From: Sebaldella termitidis ATCC 33386
GTDB lineage: Bacteria; Fusobacteriota; Fusobacteriia; Fusobacteriales; Leptotrichiaceae
DNA length: 64,000 nucleotides
Reading direction: 5' to 3'
Assembly (NCBI RefSeq): GCF_000024405.1
Contig: NC_013517.1
Span: 1,364,001 to 1,428,000, forward strand
Shown: positions 17,307 to 53,769 of the stretch, piece after piece
Layout of the letters: every line of letters starts with the position of its first letter
Numbering within the stretch: the stretch's first letter is position 1
Notes under the pieces: generated by a model
Database searches by the model: none
Seen by the model: the letters and a program-made list of their open reading frames with translations, nothing else
What the model was told of the DNA's origin: nothing
Translations under genes and position numbers: made by a program

Positions 17307-18050
17307 ATGGAACACAGATATAAAGACCCGAAAGAGCTTATCGGGATAGAATTTGAAGAATCAGGACAAACTTATAAAATAACCGGAATAGGAGAAACAA
17401 CAGAGGAATTCATGACACTGTTTACAGAAAAAGTAAAAGAGGAAATAATTAATTGGAATGGAAAAGTACTTATTGATGTAGGTCACGGTGGAACCAAAAC
17501 CACATCAAGTGGCAAAAAATACAGAGATTACGGAGCTGTAAACGATAAGTCAAAAGTGGACGAATTTACATGGAATCATGACTTTGTTATGAGATATATA
17601 ATTCCAGAATTAAATGCATCTGGAATAGCAAATAAAGTAGTTTTAAGAAGCACAAATATAACAAAACTTGTTACTGATTTAAATAAAGAATCAGGAAAAG
17701 ATGATATTATTCTATCTTTTCACCTGAACAGTGATATAAAAGCTTCTGGAACAGAGACATTGTACTGGCATACAAGTGAAAAAGGCAAAAAGCTTGCGGG
17801 ACTAATTCAAAAAGGACTGGTAGGAGTTTTAGGGTTGCCGGACAGAGGAATCAAAATAAGAAGAAAACCTTTAGATAATGCTGATGCATTAAATCAAAGA
17901 GGTTGGACAATGTTTAAAGATACCAAAGTTCCATTTGTAATGTTAGAAAGTTTCTTTATTACAAATGACGGGGATCTCAAAAGAGGAAATGAAAAAAAGG
18001 CAGAGTTAGCAAAAGCTGTGGTATCAGCAATAAAAGAATATATAAAATAA
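17307..18050 (+). CDS. Endolysin, N-acetylmuramoyl-L-alanine amidase (Amidase_3)
   Basis: 247 residues, ATG preceded by AAGGAGGAA. After an N-terminal 45-residue stretch with no clear family, the Amidase_3 zinc enzyme begins: IDVGHGG (zinc His, about residue 60), Glu in the DEFTWNHDF helix, SFHLNSD (second zinc His), and the catalytic Glu of MLESFF near residue 214. It cleaves the bond between MurNAc and L-Ala of the peptidoglycan stem. No signal peptide, so export depends on the holin encoded downstream. Confidence 0.9.
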   Translation: MEHRYKDPKELIGIEFEESGQTYKITGIGETTEEFMTLFTEKVKEEIINWNGKVLIDVGHGGTKTTSSGKKYRDYGAVNDKSKVDEFTWNHDFVMRYIIPELNASGIANKVVLRSTNITKLVTDLNKESGKDDIILSFHLNSDIKASGTETLYWHTSEKGKKLAGLIQKGLVGVLGLPDRGIKIRRKPLDNADALNQRGWTMFKDTKVPFVMLESFFITNDGDLKRGNEKKAELAKAVVSAIKEYIK

Positions 18051-18410: not shown

Positions 18411-18818
18411 ATGACAACAAAAATAGAGTATTCAGTTGTATTTTCAGTAATAGGAAGTTTTGTATTTTATTTTTTGGGTGGTGCCGATACGTTACTAAAA
18501 GTGACGGTCAGCCTTATCCTTTTAGATTATCTGACAGGATTTATAAAAGCGATAATGACAACTGGACTTAATTCAAATAAAGGTTTAAAAGGAATACTAA
18601 GAAAAACAATGTATTTATCAGCAATAATATTATCAGTATTATTGGATAAAGTAACACATTTAAATGAAGCAGGGCTAAGTTTTCGGACTATAATGTTATT
18701 ATATATGATAGGAACAGAAGGAATATCAATACTGGAAAACCTATCAATTATGGGAATAAAAATGCCAAAAAAGATAGAAAATATGTTAGAAAAATTGAAA
18801 GATGAAGTACCTAGATAA
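18411..18818 (+). CDS. Phage holin, Holin_4/TcdE-like family
   Basis: 135 residues, ATG after AAGGAGAA. Three to four hydrophobic segments (VVFSVIGSFVFYFLGGADTL; VTVSLILLDYLTGFIKAI; TMYLSAIILSVLLD; TIMLLYMIGTEG). LLDYLTG followed by the SNKGLKGILRK loop and the GTEGISILENLSIMG end are hallmarks of Phage_holin_4_1 proteins. It would form the membrane lesion that lets the amidase out. A remnant of a second holin of the same type lies at 22848-22979. Confidence 0.9.
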   Translation: MTTKIEYSVVFSVIGSFVFYFLGGADTLLKVTVSLILLDYLTGFIKAIMTTGLNSNKGLKGILRKTMYLSAIILSVLLDKVTHLNEAGLSFRTIMLLYMIGTEGISILENLSIMGIKMPKKIENMLEKLKDEVPR

Positions 18819-18883: not shown

Positions 18884-18912
18884 TTGATTAAATATTTTTT
18901 TTATTATATAAT
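18884..18912 (+). promoter_or_regulatory. Promoter of the nuclease-ATPase module
   Basis: TTGATT (18884-18889), 17-base spacer, TATAAT (18907-18912), 28 bases before the ATG at 18940. It gives this module transcription of its own, apart from the phage late operon. Confidence 0.65.
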
Positions 18913-18939: not shown

Positions 18940-19965
18940 ATGTTGAGTGAAACTAAAGTTGATTTTGGTGGAGTGGAAGCAATAAGAGGATTTACTTATC
19001 AAAAAGCTGTCACAGCTCTTATTTTATTATTGAATTATAATAATGAAACCCTTTGGGTAGTGCCAGAAGGATATGAAGATATAGATGTTCATTTAGAAGA
19101 AAATCTTTATTATATTCAAGTAAAATCAAAATCATTAACAACTTCTAAACTAATCGTACCAGATAAGAATCAAGAATACTCAATAATTGAAAAATTGCAT
19201 AATAATAAAATAAATAGTGAAAATTTAAATTTTAAAATAGTTTGTATTGATTGTGATTGTATTAAAGAAGATAGTGCAGAAGCAACAGTATTATTTACTC
19301 GAACAGATACCCATATTAATAAATATAAGTATGGAATTGATATAGGAAAAATAGAAAAATCTAGAGCATACAAAAAGTTTAATGATAGTAAAAAAGAAAA
19401 TTTGAAAGAAATTGCTAAAAAGATATATGTATATAAAACTCCCTTTACAAAAGAATTAGATAGTTATTGGACATATTTATTAGGGGTTTTGACGGGAAAA
19501 AATATTGTTACAAATGATCATAAGGGGAAAAATACATTAATTTTAATTGATAGTATTATAAAGGCTAAGACGCAGATCAAGTTTTTAAATGATCAAGTTT
19601 ATGAAGATAAAAAAATACATACAAGTATGATAAAACCACTTATTGAGACAAATAAAATGTCAGCATTATTTAATGAGTGTTTGGAAGAGATAGGATATGG
19701 AATTTTACAAAAAGATGAAATAAATCAAGCTAAAGCAATGATTGCTATTCCTTTAATTTCTGATAGACATTATTCTTATATAGAGTCTTGTTTAAATGAT
19801 TTGAGCTATTTAAAATCATTAAGATATAAAATAAAAGATTACATTGATTTTTCTTTAGGAGAAATAAAGAAAAATGAACAAATTATGAATGAATTATCAG
19901 AGAATGATATAATAGCAAGAATTGTTTTATACTATGTCAGAAAGGAGTTTCAGCATGACATTTGA
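18940..19965 (+). CDS. Probable nuclease of a two-gene defence module (DUF4297-like N-terminus)
   Basis: 341 residues, ATG 18940 with GGAGG upstream. The N-terminus has RGFTYQKAVTALILLLNY, then VPEGYEDIDVHLEENLYYIQVKSK. Conserved Gly-aromatic-Tyr-Gln, Glu-Asp-hydrophobic-Asp and Gln-Val-Lys are the arrangement of DUF4297/Cap4-type PD-(D/E)xK-like nucleases (E/D and QxK as metal site). The rest is helical with no clear family. It overlaps the next gene by 11 bases, so the two are co-translated. Base composition is even more AT-rich than the phage genes beside it. Nuclease assignment is by motif only; a non-catalytic sensor is possible. Confidence 0.55.
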   Translation: MLSETKVDFGGVEAIRGFTYQKAVTALILLLNYNNETLWVVPEGYEDIDVHLEENLYYIQVKSKSLTTSKLIVPDKNQEYSIIEKLHNNKINSENLNFKIVCIDCDCIKEDSAEATVLFTRTDTHINKYKYGIDIGKIEKSRAYKKFNDSKKENLKEIAKKIYVYKTPFTKELDSYWTYLLGVLTGKNIVTNDHKGKNTLILIDSIIKAKTQIKFLNDQVYEDKKIHTSMIKPLIETNKMSALFNECLEEIGYGILQKDEINQAKAMIAIPLISDRHYSYIESCLNDLSYLKSLRYKIKDYIDFSLGEIKKNEQIMNELSENDIIARIVLYYVRKEFQHDI

Positions 19966-21628
19966 TAAATTTATTATTTTAGATTATGTTAATAAAAAAT
20001 CATTGAAGCTAGAATTTTCTAACACACAAAACTTAATAGTTGGAAAAAGAAATAAAATAGGAAAATCAAGTATTGTAAAATCATTATTTTATACATTAGG
20101 TTATAATAATGGAAGTTCTATGCCTGATGGTTGGATATATAATAATATGAAATTTAAATTATTTTTTACTAATAATGGCGAAAGTAGTTACATAATTAGA
20201 CATCAAGATTTATTCTATGTGGAAGGCAGTGAAAAACCATTAGATGAAAAGGAGTATAGATATTGGTTTCAAAATTTACTTGGTATAGATTATAGATTAA
20301 AATTAAGTAGAGAAAAAGAAATACAAAATGCGAATGAATATAAAATATATGCTTCAGCAGTAATTATGCCATTTTATATTGATCAAGATATTTCATGGCG
20401 TGGAACTCCTTATAAATCAGAAGTCATGGGAATGTATGGGCAAAGTTCATATAAAAATATGTTTGAAAAATTATTTTCTGTTTCAGACGATAAAATTACT
20501 AAATTGAAAGAAAAAATTAAAAAATTTAAAGATGAAAATAAAAAACTATTAGAAAAAATTTCTGTTCTTGAAGAATTAATAGAGGAGCAAATAAAACAAA
20601 AAAATAGTAGTATACAGTATGATGAAGAATATTTTGAGAAGAGAGAAGAGTATCTAAAAATTCTTAGTAAAATAAATGATGAAATACAAAATAATACTAA
20701 AGAAAAAATGAAAATCTCTGAAAAATTAAATACGATATTTTCTGAATTAAATCATTTAGAAGAAATAAAAAAGATGTTGGAGAAAAAAAATAAGAACTTG
20801 ATGGGAGTATGTAAACATTGTGGTTCATCTTCTTCAATAACGCAATTAGCGGATAGACTTACAGTTATGAATAATATTGATGAAATAAGCTATCAAATTG
20901 ATACTACTAGAAAAAGCATGGAATTAGAGCAACAAACAATGAATGAGTTTATTGAAAGAGAAAAGAAAGTAAAAAATATTTATAATGAGTATATGAGTAT
21001 AATAAAAAGAGAACCAGACTTAAAATCCATTGATAGTTATATTCAAAATTCAGCAGAAAGTTTGGCAAGTGATGTTCTTATAAAAAAGAAAGAAAAAGCA
21101 GGAACAAAAGTAGGAACAAATATTGTAGAAATAAAGAAAAATGAAAGTTTATTGCGTACTTTGGAATCTAAACAACAAAAGAAAACAGCTGAAATATCTA
21201 AAAAATATGAAGAATTGTTTTTAGATATAATATCAAGCTCATTAACTTCAATTTCAAATTATACATTAAAAGACTATCCTTTTTTAAATTTTACTAAAAT
21301 TAAAGGTAGTGGTACCGATGCAAATCTTAAAACTTATTTAGTATACTTAATATATTTTAATTTATTAAATTCATATTCAGAAGTAAAGATTCCTTTTTTA
21401 ATTGATTCTTTCATAACAACAGAGCTTGATATTGAAAATAAAAAAGAAATGTTTAGTGCAGTATCAAAATACTTTTTAGAATTAGATTCTCAAACTTTTT
21501 TTACAGTTATTGAAGAAAATTTAGAATATATAACGAACCATGAAAAATATAAAAAACATTTTATACATTCGAAACCAATATTAAAAGATGAAAATTATGA
21601 GGAAAATTTAGAAGAATTTAAATTATAA
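19955..21628 (+). CDS. SMC/Rad50-like ABC ATPase with CxxC hook, partner of the nuclease
   Basis: 557 residues from ATG 19955 (AAAGGAG 8 bases upstream); an earlier in-frame ATG at 19922 has no ribosome site. Walker A is GKRNKIGKSS near residues 30-39. Residues about 180-260 and 310-400 are coiled coil, and between them sits VCKHCGSS, a CxxC as in the Rad50 zinc hook. Toward the C-terminus come GSGTDANLKTYLVYL (ABC signature region) and PFLIDSFI (Walker B, with Ser where Glu is usual). Together with the upstream nuclease-like protein this resembles ABC-type anti-phage systems (ABC-3C or Rad50-like). It lies behind prophage lysis genes, a typical place for superinfection-exclusion cargo. Confidence 0.7.
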   Translation: MTFDKFIILDYVNKKSLKLEFSNTQNLIVGKRNKIGKSSIVKSLFYTLGYNNGSSMPDGWIYNNMKFKLFFTNNGESSYIIRHQDLFYVEGSEKPLDEKEYRYWFQNLLGIDYRLKLSREKEIQNANEYKIYASAVIMPFYIDQDISWRGTPYKSEVMGMYGQSSYKNMFEKLFSVSDDKITKLKEKIKKFKDENKKLLEKISVLEELIEEQIKQKNSSIQYDEEYFEKREEYLKILSKINDEIQNNTKEKMKISEKLNTIFSELNHLEEIKKMLEKKNKNLMGVCKHCGSSSSITQLADRLTVMNNIDEISYQIDTTRKSMELEQQTMNEFIEREKKVKNIYNEYMSIIKREPDLKSIDSYIQNSAESLASDVLIKKKEKAGTKVGTNIVEIKKNESLLRTLESKQQKKTAEISKKYEELFLDIISSSLTSISNYTLKDYPFLNFTKIKGSGTDANLKTYLVYLIYFNLLNSYSEVKIPFLIDSFITTELDIENKKEMFSAVSKYFLELDSQTFFTVIEENLEYITNHEKYKKHFIHSKPILKDENYEENLEEFKL

Positions 21629-21956
21629 AAATATTTCATATGTAGAGGAGTCATTATGCTACTTTCTTATTTGACAAAATAAATATTGACAGATATTATA
21701 AGAATTAATAAAATATTCTGAGCGCAGATATACTTTTATAGTATAGTCTATCTAGAAGTAAGTAGTAAAAAAGTAGGAAAGACCTATTGAAAAATCAATA
21801 TTTTATCAATGATATTAATAAGAGTATTAATTGGATAAAATAAGTTTGAGGCTAGATAACATCATGAGTTTTAGAAAAAGATATTTAAGAGTTTGGATAA
21901 GTAAAAATAAGAAGAGTACAATTAAATATTATATGGAAAAGTATTTAGGAATAAAA
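21629..21956 (+). other. Gap with orphan promoter and short relic frame
   Basis: A consensus promoter TTGACA (21686-21691), 17-base spacer, TAAAAT (21709-21714) points right, but no gene follows. The transcript would start with an imperfect hairpin around AGATATAC/GTATAGTCT (21728-21752). A 32-codon frame at 21865-21962 (MSFRKRYLRVW...) has no ribosome site and begins like the holin relic at 22848 (MSFR), so it may be another relic. Confidence 0.4.
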
Positions 21957-21985
21957 AAATGAGCTAAACTTTGCTCATTTTTTGT
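21957..21985. terminator. Bidirectional intrinsic terminator
   Basis: Stem ATGAGC / GCTCAT with an 8-base loop, followed by TTTTTT on + and preceded by A-rich sequence, so it works both ways. It separates the region behind the defence module from the convergent membrane protein gene. Confidence 0.7.
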
Positions 21986-21987
21986 TA

Positions 21988-22671
21988 TCATAGTACTTCT
22001 TTTTTTAGCGCTTCTGTTGATAAATAATAATATTTTCTACAAATTTTTAGAATCTTATATTTTTCCATGTTATTAGAATCTTTTAGAAGTGATTTGAAAT
22101 TTTTTTTATTTTTTCTTCGAAATAAAAATTTAATTTTAAAATAAGATTCAAAATTTGAAACTTCTAACTTGAAAAAAATATTTAAATCATTGAGAATGAT
22201 AAAGTTTTCTCTTTGTTTAACATTTTTACTGATTTCTTTTAGAGCAAAATCCATTTCAATTTTTTGCTTGTAAATATTTTTAATAACATTAATATCAAAT
22301 ATATTTTCCCACTCAAGTATAATATCTAAAGTAAGGAGAATTAAAAAACAAAACAGTATAAAAGAATAGAAAGAAGAAAAGTATACCAATAGGGGATCTT
22401 TGATTTCAATATTCCAAAAAAGATTAAAGTAAAATATGAAAATAAAAAAAATAATAGCAAAAATAACATGTTTTGAAATTTTATTATTATGAGATTTTAT
22501 TCCATATAGTAAAATACCACTTAGATATGAAAAAATAACAAAATTAGAACTTAGTGATGAAATATCCAATTTAATATATCTTTTTAAGTCATATGTAAAA
22601 TAAATAATTATTAAACAAATATAAATGCCTATAATTAATTTATAATTGTGGAATCTGTATTTTTTTTTCAT
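21988..22671 (-). CDS. Membrane protein, unknown function
   Basis: 227 residues; ATG 22671 preceded (minus strand) by TAGGAGG. Four hydrophobic segments in the first 115 residues (KLIIGIYICLIIIYFTY; NFVIFSYLSGILLYG; HVIFAIIFFIFIFYFNLF; FILFCFLILLTLDIIL), then a basic cytoplasmic tail rich in Lys and Phe. The junction LTLDIILEWENIFDI resembles GVLLEWEIHIDI in the membrane protein at 46438, so the two may belong to one family. No known family recognised. Confidence 0.6.
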   Translation of the reverse strand: MKKKYRFHNYKLIIGIYICLIIIYFTYDLKRYIKLDISSLSSNFVIFSYLSGILLYGIKSHNNKISKHVIFAIIFFIFIFYFNLFWNIEIKDPLLVYFSSFYSFILFCFLILLTLDIILEWENIFDINVIKNIYKQKIEMDFALKEISKNVKQRENFIILNDLNIFFKLEVSNFESYFKIKFLFRRKNKKNFKSLLKDSNNMEKYKILKICRKYYYLSTEALKKEVL

Positions 22672-22847
22672 AAATCCTCCTAAATAAAATATAAACTAAG
22701 TATAGCAAAAAGTTGATAAAAAACAAAGAAATTATTAGAATACTGATTTTCACATAAAAAAATATTAAGAACGAGAAATTATGTTTTGTTTACATAAAAC
22801 AAAGAAAAATAAAAGTAAAAAAGCAATATCTTTAATCAGATAACAGT

Positions 22848-22979
22848 ATGAGTTTTCGGATATTGGTGCTTATAATAGCAAATGAGGGAATATCAATACT
22901 GGAAAATATATCAGAAATGGGAGTACCGATACCCGGATTTTTAAAGAAGGTATTTGAAAGACTGGATAAGAATGAATAG
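22848..22979 (+). pseudogene. Holin relic (C-terminal 43 residues)
   Basis: The frame MSFRILVLIIANEGISILE...FLKKVFERLDKNE matches the end of the intact holin at 18411 (LSFRTIMLLYMIGTEGISIL...MPKKIENMLEKL). The N-terminal half with the first membrane segments is gone and there is no ribosome site. It marks the remains of a second prophage lysis region. Confidence 0.75.
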
Positions 22980-23006
22980 AACCTGATTAATTTCAGGTTT
23001 CTTTTA
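22980..23006 (+). terminator. Intrinsic terminator behind the holin relic
   Basis: Stem AACCTGA / TCAGGTT with loop TTAATT, then TCTTTTATTT. It directly follows the stop of the holin relic, so it is likely the old phage lysis terminator. Confidence 0.65.
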
Positions 23007-26007: not shown

Positions 26008-26313
26008 ATGAAAAGAGTTCCTCTATTCTTATTATTTGGAGCAGTAATTTTTTCAGGAAACATTGGCAGTGACTGCACATTAAATGGTAAGAGATTGTAT
26101 GGTAAAGTAAGAGTTGTATCATCTATGGCCGATTTTAAAGTAGAAGTTGTTAGTAGTGGTGCAGATCTTAAGGTTGAGCAAGTGAATATGTTTTCTGATT
26201 CTTGTGGTAAATGGGAATTTACCGATATGTTCTCAGATTTTACAGTTGAATTTGTAAATGTAAATTCTGATTTTAAGATTGAATTTGTTAATATGTTTCC
26301 TGGAGTTCAATAA
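26008..26313 (+). CDS. 7(1) septoil-knot family secreted protein
   Basis: 101 residues with a signal peptide (MKRVPLFLLFGAVIFSG) and ribosome site AGGAGG. The mature part is a chain of about ten-residue beta repeats: GKVRVVSSMADFKVEVV, GADLKVEQVNMFSDSCGKW, DFTVEFVNVNSDFKIEFVN, ending FPGVQ. Spacing, the CTLNGKRLYGKV start and the DSCGKW turn match the small bacterial family named 7(1) septoil knot (Pfam Septknot), among the most complex protein knots described. Two Cys could form a disulphide. Biological role unknown. Confidence 0.75.
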   Translation: MKRVPLFLLFGAVIFSGNIGSDCTLNGKRLYGKVRVVSSMADFKVEVVSSGADLKVEQVNMFSDSCGKWEFTDMFSDFTVEFVNVNSDFKIEFVNMFPGVQ

Positions 26314-41489: not shown

Positions 41490-42140
41490 TTGGAAAAAAC
41501 TGAAAGAATAGAAAAAAAGTTTTGTAACAAATGTAATGGGAAGAGAAATCATAAATATCAAGTAGATTTTTTATTTGAAGATTCCGAAATTATTGAAAAT
41601 ATGTTTGGAGTAGAGTGGAGTGAGAATTGGATCATTTGGCAATGTATGGGTTGTGATGAAATAGTCATTGAAAAAGTTGATTATTTTTCTGAAGATAGAG
41701 ATGAAGAAGGCAATCCTATTTTAACAAATACTTTCTATCCAACAAGAAATATAAAATCATTAAAGAAAAAAATATATATAAAAATACCACAAAAATTAAG
41801 AGTTATTTATAATGAAATAATTGATAGTTATAATAACTCATGTTTATTACTTTGTTCAATAGGACTAAGAACTTTACTTGAAGCTATTTGTGTAGATAAA
41901 GGAGTAAAAGGGAAAAATTTAATGAATAAAATAGATAATTCTACTTTTATAACTGATAATATAAAAAAGAATTTACATGGAATCAGATACTTAGGAAATG
42001 ATGCGACTCATGATTTTATTTCATCTAAAAAAGAGGATTTAGAATTAACAATAAAAATACTCGAGGATATACTAAATACTGTATATGATTTAGATTATAA
42101 GAGTACGATTATGTATAATAAATTTAAGAAGATTACATAA
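41490..42140 (+). CDS. DUF4145 protein with zinc ribbon
   Basis: 216 residues, TTG start at 41490 with GGGAGG 7 bases upstream. N-terminal zinc ribbon CNKCNGKRNHKY ... WQCMGCDEIV. DUF4145 core: NNSCLLLCSIGLRTLLEAICVDKGVKG and GIRYLGNDATHDF. The domain is frequent in restriction and other defence proteins as a stand-alone or fused unit; here it stands alone between a TA cassette and an ATPase/TOPRIM-like pair. Reaction unknown. Confidence 0.8.
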   Translation: MEKTERIEKKFCNKCNGKRNHKYQVDFLFEDSEIIENMFGVEWSENWIIWQCMGCDEIVIEKVDYFSEDRDEEGNPILTNTFYPTRNIKSLKKKIYIKIPQKLRVIYNEIIDSYNNSCLLLCSIGLRTLLEAICVDKGVKGKNLMNKIDNSTFITDNIKKNLHGIRYLGNDATHDFISSKKEDLELTIKILEDILNTVYDLDYKSTIMYNKFKKIT

Positions 42141-42714: not shown

Positions 42715-44241
42715 ATGTTTAAAATGGGGTATAAGAATTTAAGAAGTTTAAATATGGAAGAATCACTTGAAATTAAACCAATAACTACTTTAGTTGGACT
42801 AAATAGTTCCGGGAAGAGTACTTTTTTGAGAGCGTTAATGTTATTAAAACAAAGTTTTGATTTAAACAATGCTGCACCAATCATATGGTATAATTATGAT
42901 AATCAAGTAGATTTCGGTTCTTTTGATGAGGCTATAAATAATAATGCTTCTGAAGAAGAAATTATGTTTTCATTTGAATTTTTATTTTCAAATATTATAA
43001 GCGGATATAGTTTTGAAGACAAAAGAGAAGAAAAAATACCAATAAAAATAAATAGTACATTAAAAAAAAGTGGTGGAAAAGAATATATATCTAAAGTAGA
43101 GTTTGAATTTTTTGGCAATAATTTTTTAATTAGTCATGAAAAGAAAAATACTGTTAAGGTAAAAATAAATAATGAAATATTTGAAGAAGTTGAAAAAAAA
43201 CATTGGATATATCCATTTAAATTAAGTACTTTAATTCCGGAGATTCATGTTGGGAGAGAAAAGCTTTTTGCTGAAATAGATGAGGATATTTTTGATGTAG
43301 AGAAGTTAGGAAAACTTATGAATAAAAAAAATAGCTTTGAAATAGAAATATTAGGAAGAAAAAAAAATTCTAAAAAACAGGAAGAATTTTTAAAGTTTTT
43401 TTCGTTGATAGAAAAAATTCTAAGATATGAGGAATTTGCTGAACTTATAACAAAGTTCTCAAAAATAACTTTGAAAAAAAATGATACGATGAAATATTAT
43501 AATTTGTTTTTAGCATATAACTTGTATAAAATTAATATGAATATTTCGATTACACTTTGTAAAATAATAGAGAATGTTGAGTATATAACCCCATTAAGAG
43601 CAATGAGTGAAAGATATTATAGAATAAATTCCAACATTAGAAAGATAGATCCTAGTGGTAGAAATTTAGCTACTTATATTTCTAATTTTTCTGAAACTGA
43701 CATGATTAAATTAAAAAAATGGTTAATTGAAAATTTTCAATTTTCAATTGACTTAAAAGAATCTACTGGACATAATTCAATTAAAGTAATTGATGCCTCA
43801 AACAATGAAGGAGCAAATATAATAGATACTGGCTTTGGATACTCACAAATTTTACCAATTTTAATTAATTTGTGGGAAATTTCAAATAAAACTAATAAAA
43901 GTAGACAATATGACAAAAATTTAAAAATTTTATTAATAGAACAACCAGAACTACATTTACATCCAGCTTTTCAAGCGAAATTAACTGATGTGATAATAAA
44001 TTTAGTTGAAAAAACGAAAGAAAAAATTGATTTTAGAATAATAATGGAAACTCATAGTGAAACAATTATAAATAGAATTTGTAATCAGATAGGAAAAGGA
44101 AACTTAAATAAAGAGGATATTTCGTTGTTGATCTTTGAAAAAGAAAAAATAGGTACTGTAATTAAAGAAGCAGAATTTGACGATGAGGGATATTTGACAA
44201 ATTGGCCTTATGGTTTTTTTGAACCAGAAGGAGTGAAATAA
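42715..44241 (+). CDS. AAA/ABC-type ATPase, DUF3696 family, of a putative defence pair
   Basis: 508 residues; ATG with CAGGAGAG upstream. Walker A GLNSSGKSTFLRALMLLKQ near residue 28, a long insertion (residues 90-280), signature region DTGFGYSQILPILINL, Walker B LLIEQPELHLHPAFQAKL, His switch METHSETIINRI. The end (FEPEG) matches DUF3696. OLD/AAA-15 type ATPases of this kind work as sensors in defence modules (PARIS AriA, retron, Gabija-like). Stop and next ATG overlap by one base (TAATG), so both proteins are made together. Confidence 0.8.
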   Translation: MFKMGYKNLRSLNMEESLEIKPITTLVGLNSSGKSTFLRALMLLKQSFDLNNAAPIIWYNYDNQVDFGSFDEAINNNASEEEIMFSFEFLFSNIISGYSFEDKREEKIPIKINSTLKKSGGKEYISKVEFEFFGNNFLISHEKKNTVKVKINNEIFEEVEKKHWIYPFKLSTLIPEIHVGREKLFAEIDEDIFDVEKLGKLMNKKNSFEIEILGRKKNSKKQEEFLKFFSLIEKILRYEEFAELITKFSKITLKKNDTMKYYNLFLAYNLYKINMNISITLCKIIENVEYITPLRAMSERYYRINSNIRKIDPSGRNLATYISNFSETDMIKLKKWLIENFQFSIDLKESTGHNSIKVIDASNNEGANIIDTGFGYSQILPILINLWEISNKTNKSRQYDKNLKILLIEQPELHLHPAFQAKLTDVIINLVEKTKEKIDFRIIMETHSETIINRICNQIGKGNLNKEDISLLIFEKEKIGTVIKEAEFDDEGYLTNWPYGFFEPEGVK

Positions 44242-45296
44242 TGCTTATAAAATTAGATAGTTCTATTGTTGAATTAAATAGAAATTATGAAGATGAAGAA
44301 ATTTATGCTATACAGAAGTTAATAAATTTAGTAAGAAAAAGATACCATCTTATATATTCAAAATATGAAGTTTTGGAAAAATTATCAAAAATTGAAGATT
44401 TAGGCTGCAGAGATAGAAAAATTTTTGAAAAGCTTGCAACAAGAATTCGTCAAAAATTTAATTTTTATGAAAAAAATTTCAAAAAAAGACTTTTAATATA
44501 TATAGATACACCAAAGGAAAAAAAATCTAAAAATGATATTCAAATAGAGTTAAAAGATTTTGATAAAATTGACGAAACTAAAACAAATTTTTTAGTAGAA
44601 GGAAAGGATATAACTTTTTTTGATTTTATTGTCAATTTTCATTTTGAAAATTTTAATAAAAAAATAGCTTATAATTACATAAATACTTATGATGAAATTA
44701 CTGGTGGTGGAAACACCACTGCTGATAATTTTAGAAAATTAAAAAAAAATAAAATTGTGATTTGTGTATGTGATAGTGATAGAGATTATAAAAATTGTAG
44801 ACTTGGAGATACAGCAAAAAAAATAAAAAAAGTTAAGATACTTTGCCATGAAATTGCTCATTTGATGATTTTAGAAGAAAAAGCAATTGAAAATCTAATT
44901 CCAAGAGTAATCTATAATCCAATTCTTGAAAATAAGTCAGATTTTTTAGATAAATTAGAAAAAGAAAAAGAATTCGAATATATAAAACATTTAGATTTTA
45001 AAAAAGGGATGAAAAAGAAAAGATTTTTGGAGTGTAAAGAATATAAAAAATTCTGGAAATTGAAAATAGAAGAATTCTTTAAAGAAGAATTGGATAAAAA
45101 ATTAGATGATTTGGATGAAGAGAGTTGTGTGATAGAAAAAGTTTCAGAAAATTTATTAAATTCAGTAAATAAAAGAATAGAAACAGGTAAAATAAATATA
45201 GAATATAGTTCATTATCTGATTATCATAAAAAAAGATGGCAGGAAATTGCTGAAGAGTTGATTTGTTGGTTTATTTGTGAAACCAATCCAATATAA
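44241..45296 (+). CDS. TOPRIM-like effector candidate, partner of the ATPase
   Basis: 351 residues, translation coupled to the ATPase. Residues 115-125 TNFLVEGKDITFFDF and 172-182 IVICVCDSDRDY form the E and DxD pairs of a TOPRIM fold; CDSDRDY is close to the DUF4435/AriB style. Residues 1-110 are helical and basic; the C-terminus is Lys/Glu-rich. With the preceding ATPase it resembles PARIS (AriA-AriB) or a split OLD nuclease, but I cannot assign a named subtype. Expected action: nucleic acid cleavage upon phage infection. Confidence 0.6.
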   Translation: MLIKLDSSIVELNRNYEDEEIYAIQKLINLVRKRYHLIYSKYEVLEKLSKIEDLGCRDRKIFEKLATRIRQKFNFYEKNFKKRLLIYIDTPKEKKSKNDIQIELKDFDKIDETKTNFLVEGKDITFFDFIVNFHFENFNKKIAYNYINTYDEITGGGNTTADNFRKLKKNKIVICVCDSDRDYKNCRLGDTAKKIKKVKILCHEIAHLMILEEKAIENLIPRVIYNPILENKSDFLDKLEKEKEFEYIKHLDFKKGMKKKRFLECKEYKKFWKLKIEEFFKEELDKKLDDLDEESCVIEKVSENLLNSVNKRIETGKINIEYSSLSDYHKKRWQEIAEELICWFICETNPI

Positions 45297-52778: not shown

Positions 52779-53489
52779 TTATGCGGATAGAGTGCTAACA
52801 ATATTCTTTAAAATATCAATAACCTTAATATAATACCTGAAAGTCTCAACTTCCTTACTGGAATACTTAGACTTGTCATAAAAGACTTTTCCATATTCTT
52901 CAGTACGGAGATTATGCTTTTTAGTTAATCTTCCAACCATATTAGCTGAGATATTAAGCATTTTGCCAATTTCAGTAGCACTATAGGTTATTTCACCAAC
53001 AACAGGTAATGGAAGTAGAAAATCCCCGGTTAGTACCTTAGTAGCATGAGCATTAAGTATCTGCTTGTATTCAGGAATCAGAATACTGTCAGCCATATTA
53101 TTAAGAAATTCAGCAGTTTTAAGTTGGATTTCTTTTTCTTTTAGTTCAAGTTCTTTTGGTGTTTGGTTTATTGAGTAGCTGCCAGTTTTTCTTAGTGAAG
53201 GTAATACATCATGGGTTACCCATTTAGTAAATTGATTAGCTTGAGGTTTGTCACTTCTAAAAATTACTTTATATAATCCGCTTTCATTAATGATATTGGT
53301 AATCCCTGATAAGCTCCCTAAGTCAAACTTAGTCACCTCGTCCTCATCTAATCTTTTGATCACACTACTTGGATTTGAAAGTTCTAATATCTTACATATA
53401 TCAATTAATACAAACCAGACTTCATTTTCTATCAATACAGTTCTTACTTTTCCAAATTCTTTACTTTGAAATATTTGAAGTTTATCCAT
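52779..53489 (-). CDS. Phage antirepressor (Bro-N plus KilAC)
   Basis: 236 residues from ATG 53489 with GAGGTGG upstream on minus; the in-frame ATG 53504 lies before that ribosome site. Bro-N: VRTVLIENEVWFVLIDICKILELSNPSSVIKRLDEDE ... ESGLYKVIFRSDKPQANQFTKWVTHDVLPSLRKTGSY. KilAC region from residue 170 (SATEIGKMLNISANMVGRLTKK). Such proteins lift phage repression. Overlaps the upstream small gene by 8 bases. Its 3' end sequence recurs at several TA cassettes. Confidence 0.88.
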   Translation of the reverse strand: MDKLQIFQSKEFGKVRTVLIENEVWFVLIDICKILELSNPSSVIKRLDEDEVTKFDLGSLSGITNIINESGLYKVIFRSDKPQANQFTKWVTHDVLPSLRKTGSYSINQTPKELELKEKEIQLKTAEFLNNMADSILIPEYKQILNAHATKVLTGDFLLPLPVVGEITYSATEIGKMLNISANMVGRLTKKHNLRTEEYGKVFYDKSKYSSKEVETFRYYIKVIDILKNIVSTLSA

Positions 53490-53769
53490 GAAGTACCACC
53501 TCATTTGGAGTTAAATACATTTTGTTGATATTAGATATTCCAGAAGTAGCTCCGTGTTCAAAATAGGTTTTCTTTGCGGTTAATAATACAGTTTCAAAAG
53601 TGTTAATAAGCTGTTGGATGTCATTTTTAGTACATGTAGTTTTAGAATTGATGTTTTCAATTAAGTTATAAAAGTTATCTTCCATTTTAGACAGGTCGTC
53701 TTTTAAATGACCGTAATCATACATCTCTTCAATGTGAGAGATCATAAATTCTTTAATGTTTTGATTCAT
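53482..53769 (-). CDS. Small phage-type protein upstream of the antirepressor
   Basis: 95 residues from ATG 53769 with TAGGAGGAATC on minus; longer in-frame starts have no ribosome site. Acidic and helical (MISHIEEMYDYGHLKDDLSKM), with a C-terminal SGISNINKMYLTPNEVVLHG whose codons overlap the antirepressor start. Probably cotranslated with it. Function unknown. Confidence 0.6.
   Translation of the reverse strand: MNQNIKEFMISHIEEMYDYGHLKDDLSKMEDNFYNLIENINSKTTCTKNDIQQLINTFETVLLTAKKTYFEHGATSGISNINKMYLTPNEVVLHG

What the first reader, a model, noticed from the sequence alone, without database searches (positions are those of the whole stretch)
18940..21628. Prophage-borne nuclease plus Rad50-like ATPase module
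Two overlapping genes with their own promoter lie just behind the holin: a protein with a DUF4297-like nuclease start and a coiled-coil ATPase with Walker A, CxxC hook and an altered Walker B (Asp-Ser). The pair is more AT-rich than the phage genes and sits at a classical cargo site. It may be an undescribed or little-known ABC-type anti-phage system.
Basis: partly seen in the sequence, partly recalled or inferred. Interest (0 to 1): 0.72.

Follow-up and report, generated by a model that had tools for sequence, protein, structure and literature searches.

The report
Two-gene Lamassu defence operon in prophage
The two genes are a textbook "type I" Lamassu anti-phage system, a DNA-cutting enzyme paired with a Rad50-like sensor, carried as extra cargo next to the lysis genes of a prophage in a Fusobacteriales genome; it is a new member of a family that is already described and already has a solved structure.

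Summary
Gene 1 (18940-19965, 341 aa) is LmuA with a Cap4/DUF4297 dsDNA endonuclease domain (Pfam E=9e-10; PADLOC LmuA 5e-30). Gene 2 (start best placed at ATG 19955, end 21628, 557 aa) is LmuB (PADLOC LmuB 1.2e-168). The closest solved structure for both is 9ux7, "LmuAB-DNA complex", by sequence (7e-60 and 6e-20) and by predicted fold. There is no LmuC, so this is the two-gene (type I) form. The pair is conserved: 81 of 83 other loci have a 230-460 aa ORF directly upstream of lmuB, and 20 of 22 LmuA proteins tested carry Cap4. The "altered Walker B" (Asp-Ser) is a family trait: 76 of 79 relatives have Ser/Thr/Ala there. LmuB here groups with copies from Bacilli and other phyla, not with the other Fusobacteriales copies, so it was probably acquired horizontally. 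It lies between an intact holin and the broken remains of a second holin, inside a ~79.5 kb insertion that splits dprA next to a large serine recombinase. Most likely it is a DNA-structure or DNA-end sensing abortive-infection system. Defence activity was not testable here.

The parts
18884..18912 (+). promoter-like site (TTGATT-17-TATAAT) upstream of lmuA
   Evidence: 10 of 12 consensus matches, but no excess of such sites over shuffles
18940..19965 (+). lmuA, 341 aa: Cap4/DUF4297 PD-(D/E)XK-type dsDNA endonuclease plus C-terminal helical domain
   Evidence: Pfam Cap4 9e-10; PADLOC LmuA 5e-30; PDB 9ux7_C 6e-20; predicted model (pLDDT 80.3) best PDB fold match 9ux7_C, E=6e-13
19955..21628 (+). 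lmuB, 557 aa: Rad50/SMC-like ATPase with coiled coils, CKHC hook, Walker B Asp-Ser
   Evidence: PADLOC LmuB 1.2e-168; PDB 9ux7_A 7e-60; predicted model (pLDDT 83.5) best PDB fold match 9ux7_A, E=5.9e-35
18411..18818 (+). intact phage holin (phage late gene, left border of the cargo)
   Evidence: PF05105 1.4e-33; PHROG holin 8.8e-21
17307..18050 (+). endolysin (amidase); 95% DNA identity to another prophage of the same genome
   Evidence: PHROG endolysin 2.7e-32
21755..21890 (+). remnant of a second holin gene, upstream piece
   Evidence: blastn to intact holin of sister prophage L017 and to L021
22838..23000 (+). remnant of the second holin gene, 3' end, plus terminator (22979-23000)
   Evidence: 89% identity to L017; terminator scan

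Best explanation
A type I (two-gene) Lamassu anti-phage system carried as prophage cargo. Shown: the gene pair, the nuclease and ATPase families, the conserved nuclease residues, the zinc-hook cysteines, the absence of LmuC, and the same domain architecture as the solved LmuAB-DNA complex. Inferred: two LmuB molecules and one LmuA form the resting complex. LmuB heads and coiled coils detect DNA ends or hairpin/fork-like structures made by an incoming phage or plasmid. ATP binding rather than fast hydrolysis sets the switch. LmuA is then released or oligomerises and cuts DNA, phage and host alike, ending the infection by abortive infection. Carried by a prophage, it would protect the lysogen, and so the prophage, from competing phages.
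For: PADLOC LmuA 5e-30 and LmuB 1.2e-168, far ahead of any other family. Pfam Cap4 9e-10. PDB 9ux7 LmuB 7e-60 and LmuA 6e-20, both genes hitting the same deposited complex, with two LmuB chains to one LmuA chain per entry. AlphaFold models of both proteins hit 9ux7 first (E=6e-13, TM 0.67-0.74; E=5.9e-35, TM 0.68). The lmuA-lmuB pair is intact in 4 of 5 genomes of the phylum that have this LmuB, with a shortened lmuA frame in the fifth, and an adjacent upstream 230-460 aa ORF is found in 81 of 83 non-window loci. Cap4 is in 20 of 22 partner proteins. D47, Q60 and K62 are invariant in 22 LmuAs. Hook Cys are conserved in 79-80 of 80 aligned LmuBs. Mechanism from reviews: Lamassu composition, Abi outcome and unusual Walker B (PMC10586767); DNA-end and hairpin sensing (PMC12904381).
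Against: No activity was measured. LmuA is only ~24% identical to its relatives. The P-loop lacks the first Gly, so ATP binding itself is not certain. The sensing step is taken from other Lamassu systems, partly from three-gene ones.
Confidence: 0.93

Rival explanations
1. A three-component ABC-3C or type II Lamassu (DdmABC-like) system whose middle component lies elsewhere or was lost.
For: The Lamassu superfamily includes ABC-3C and DdmABC. LmuB also matches type II structures 9hqx and 9uxh by fold.
Against: No LmuC-like ORF between or beside the genes, and no PADLOC LmuC hit in neighbours. The whole clade is two-gene. Type II structures score far lower than 9ux7 (2.7e-13 against 5.9e-35).
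Confidence: 0.03
2. A Rad50/SbcC-type repair complex or phage recombination nuclease used by the prophage for its own replication.
For: LmuB has weak SMC/Rad50 similarity (NCBIfam 7e-4) and SMC/Rad50 structures follow in the fold search.
Against: The partner is a Cap4 endonuclease, not Mre11/SbcD. The pair lies in the late/cargo zone, not with replication genes. Walker B lacks the catalytic Glu. A close sister prophage lacks it.
Confidence: 0.02
3. A decayed, non-functional Lamassu left over in a defective prophage.
For: The neighbourhood is eroding: the second holin is split and the region is AT-rich. The first Gly of the P-loop is missing.
Against: Both frames are full length, with ribosome-binding sites and all conserved nuclease and hook residues. 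The P-loop change is shared by Bacilli relatives and the solved 9ux7 protein.
Confidence: 0.1

Closest known systems
Lamassu type I (LmuAB), PDB 9ux7/9ux8
   Same: Two genes in the same order; Cap4 nuclease LmuA; LmuB of the same length with CxxC hook, identical P-loop spacing and Asp-Ser Walker B; best hit by sequence and fold for both proteins.
   Different: About 30% identical in LmuB and 21-24% in LmuA. The solved LmuA is nearly identical to a Bacillus xiamenensis protein, whereas this one is in a prophage of a Fusobacteriales genome.
Lamassu type II / DdmABC (PDB 9hqx, 9uxh)
   Same: Same superfamily: Rad50-like LmuB and, where present, Cap4 LmuA.
   Different: Those have a middle subunit, LmuC, which is absent here. 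Fold match much weaker. Reported Walker B change is Glu to Gln (PMC10586767), here Ser.
Cap4 (CBASS effector)
   Same: N-terminal dsDNA endonuclease domain (Pfam PF14130).
   Different: No SAVED/CARF domain and no cyclase next door.
Hachiman HamA
   Same: Weak match to the nuclease part (5e-4).
   Different: No HamB helicase; the partner is LmuB.

Membership tests
Lamassu type I (LmuAB) | LmuB: Rad50/SMC-like ATPase of the LmuB family | tested here: met
   PDLC00252 E=1.2e-168, nearly full length; 9ux7_A 7e-60
Lamassu type I (LmuAB) | LmuA effector directly upstream, here Cap4/DUF4297 | tested here: met
   PDLC00241 5e-30, Cap4 9e-10; 11-bp gene overlap
Lamassu type I (LmuAB) | No LmuC between or beside the two genes | tested here: met
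   Genes overlap; neighbours have no PADLOC LmuC hit
Lamassu type I (LmuAB) | Conserved catalytic residues of the nuclease (E..D..QxK) | tested here: met
   D47, Q60 and K62 invariant in 22 sequences
Lamassu type I (LmuAB) | Zinc-hook CxxC in LmuB | tested here: met
   C286 and C289
Lamassu type I (LmuAB) | Assembly into an LmuAB-DNA complex | not testable with these tools
   Only single-chain predictions were run
Lamassu type I (LmuAB) | Anti-phage or anti-plasmid activity | not testable with these tools
   Needs an assay
ABC-3C / Lamassu type II (DdmABC) | Third, middle component (MC/LmuC) | tested here: not met
Rad50/SbcCD repair complex | Mre11/SbcD phosphoesterase partner and canonical Walker B Asp-Glu | tested here: not met
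   Partner is Cap4 nuclease; Walker B is Asp-Ser
Hachiman | HamB helicase beside HamA | tested here: not met
   Only a weak HamA hit to gene 1 (5e-4); gene 2 is LmuB

The most novel reading that the evidence does not exclude
The two-gene Lamassu clade works as a one-shot ATP-binding switch. Its LmuB has lost the catalytic Walker B Glu (Ser/Thr/Ala in 76 of 79) and shows no clear H-loop His; in this subclade the first P-loop Gly is usually missing too. Activation would then need ATP binding but no turnover, which would make it irreversible.
Probability: 0.35. Interest if true: 0.4.

Novelty: new member of a known kind. Interest (0 to 1): 0.18.

Why it matters
It adds a Fusobacteriales prophage to the carriers of type I Lamassu and shows likely horizontal transfer between phyla. 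The family-wide loss of the catalytic Walker B Glu gives a simple, testable prediction about ATP turnover.

Tried and rejected
Searches of phage and plasmid records with LmuB found only distant partial matches (Klebsiella, 27-29% of the query) and one Enterococcus plasmid fragment; LmuA found no phage match. Single-sequence scans of genome and viral contigs found nothing; the five-sequence alignment found 80 genome loci. A viral-contig scan with the holin found nothing. DUF3732, Rad50 and housekeeping SMC assignments were rejected: only weak SMC_N/Rad50 similarity. A weak Cas11 hit of the 110-aa gene (0.0018) and HTH hits of the MarR gene to CARF/CasR models were treated as noise. Whole genome not available as a file. 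The 2025 PNAS Lamassu structure paper is not held.

Full report
Observation. The two reading frames are present as described. The second gene's best start is ATG 19955, with AAGGAG ten bases upstream. Family matches begin there, not at TTG 19922. Both frames are open over their full length.

Identity. Gene 1 matches Pfam Cap4_nuclease (9e-10, above cut-off) and PADLOC LmuA (5e-30). Gene 2 matches PADLOC LmuB at 1.2e-168 over nearly its whole length. Against solved structures, gene 2 hits only one significant sequence, 9ux7_A 'Lamassu protein LmuB' (7e-60), and gene 1 hits 9ux7_C 'Lamassu protein LmuA' (6e-20). The entry title is 'CryoEM structure of LmuAB-DNA complex'. AlphaFold models of both proteins (pLDDT 80.3 and 83.5) return the same entry first in the fold search. 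Three-gene Lamassu structures and Rad50/SMC proteins follow at much weaker scores. The LmuA of 9ux7 is nearly identical to a Bacillus xiamenensis LmuA.

Conserved pairing. In the window's phylum, 5 of 98 genomes have a close LmuB. Four, the window's own included, have an intact lmuA directly upstream; in the fifth (L003) the lmuA frame is short, probably broken. An alignment search of GTDB genomes gave 80 loci from many phyla. In 81 of 83 non-window LmuB loci an ORF of 230-460 aa lies directly upstream on the same strand, with no separate middle gene; the two exceptions are L003 and a contig edge. Of 22 partner proteins scanned, 20 carry Cap4. These counts include a few near-duplicates.

Altered Walker B. 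It is a family trait, not a peculiarity of this gene. The residue after the Walker B Asp is Ser 58, Thr 11, Ala 7, Glu 3 (79 rows with a residue), and it is Ser in 9ux7. A review reports Glu to Gln in Lamassu generally and predicts low ATPase (PMC10586767), so the type I clade shows the same loss by different substitutions. In the near relatives the first P-loop Gly is also usually replaced, by Lys, Glu or others (13 of 17), and there is no clear H-loop His. I infer an ATP-binding switch with little turnover. This is not shown.

Origin. In a maximum-likelihood tree the window LmuB falls (95/92) in a clade of Bacilli, Clostridia and other phyla, while the other Fusobacteriales copies branch elsewhere. 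With its low GC this suggests horizontal acquisition.

Setting. Upstream genes are phage late genes: major head protein, tail proteins, tape measure, endolysin, holin. dprA is split: its 5' part ends at genome position about 1,341,007 beside a large serine recombinase, and its 3' part starts near window 56571, so about 79.5 kb is inserted in it. I did not prove that this is one element; the right arm holds many metabolic genes and may be composite. Behind lmuB lie the pieces of a second holin, intact in a sister prophage (L017) whose endolysin is 95% identical and which has no lmuAB. So lmuAB sits at the junction between an intact lysis cassette and the ruin of another, as expected for swapped-in cargo. 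The pair's AT-richness is shared by the whole right arm and does not single it out.

Mechanism. Following the literature read here, Lamassu LmuB senses DNA ends or secondary structures and triggers the LmuA effector, causing abortive infection (PMC10586767; PMC12904381). The intact nuclease residues, hook and architecture fit that. Activity, stoichiometry and trigger for this copy are untested.

Verdict. A well-supported type I Lamassu, new only as a member and for its carrier.

Noticed in passing
window 42715-45296: A second candidate defence pair in the same insertion: an AAA_15 ATPase (PADLOC NsnB 2.5e-45, PDC-M55A 2.9e-42) followed by a 351-aa protein (PDC-M55B 8.4e-7).
   Followed up: partly
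genome C1 1341007 to window 56571: dprA is split by about 79.5 kb with a large serine recombinase at the left end (L015:11165-12574, - strand), so dprA looks like the attachment site.
   Followed up: partly
window 21854-22856: A 227-aa ORF of unknown family (- strand, 21988-22671) interrupts the second holin remnant; an imperfect 19-bp direct repeat (AGATAACATCATGAGTTTT / AGATAACAGTATGAGTTTT) flanks the insert.
   Followed up: partly
L017:9153-9473 and window 26008-26313: A nearly identical small secreted-type protein (MKRV...GNIGSDC) lies right behind the holin in a sister prophage and also 3 kb beyond the holin remnant in the window.
   Followed up: no
window 41490-42140 and 52779-53504: DUF4145 protein with a weak PD-T7-4 match (4.5e-5), and a BRO-N protein near the right end of the insertion.
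   Followed up: no
L003:3443-4027: The lmuA of genome G086 is only 194 aa as an open frame beside an intact lmuB, next to phage-like genes; probably a broken copy.
   Followed up: no
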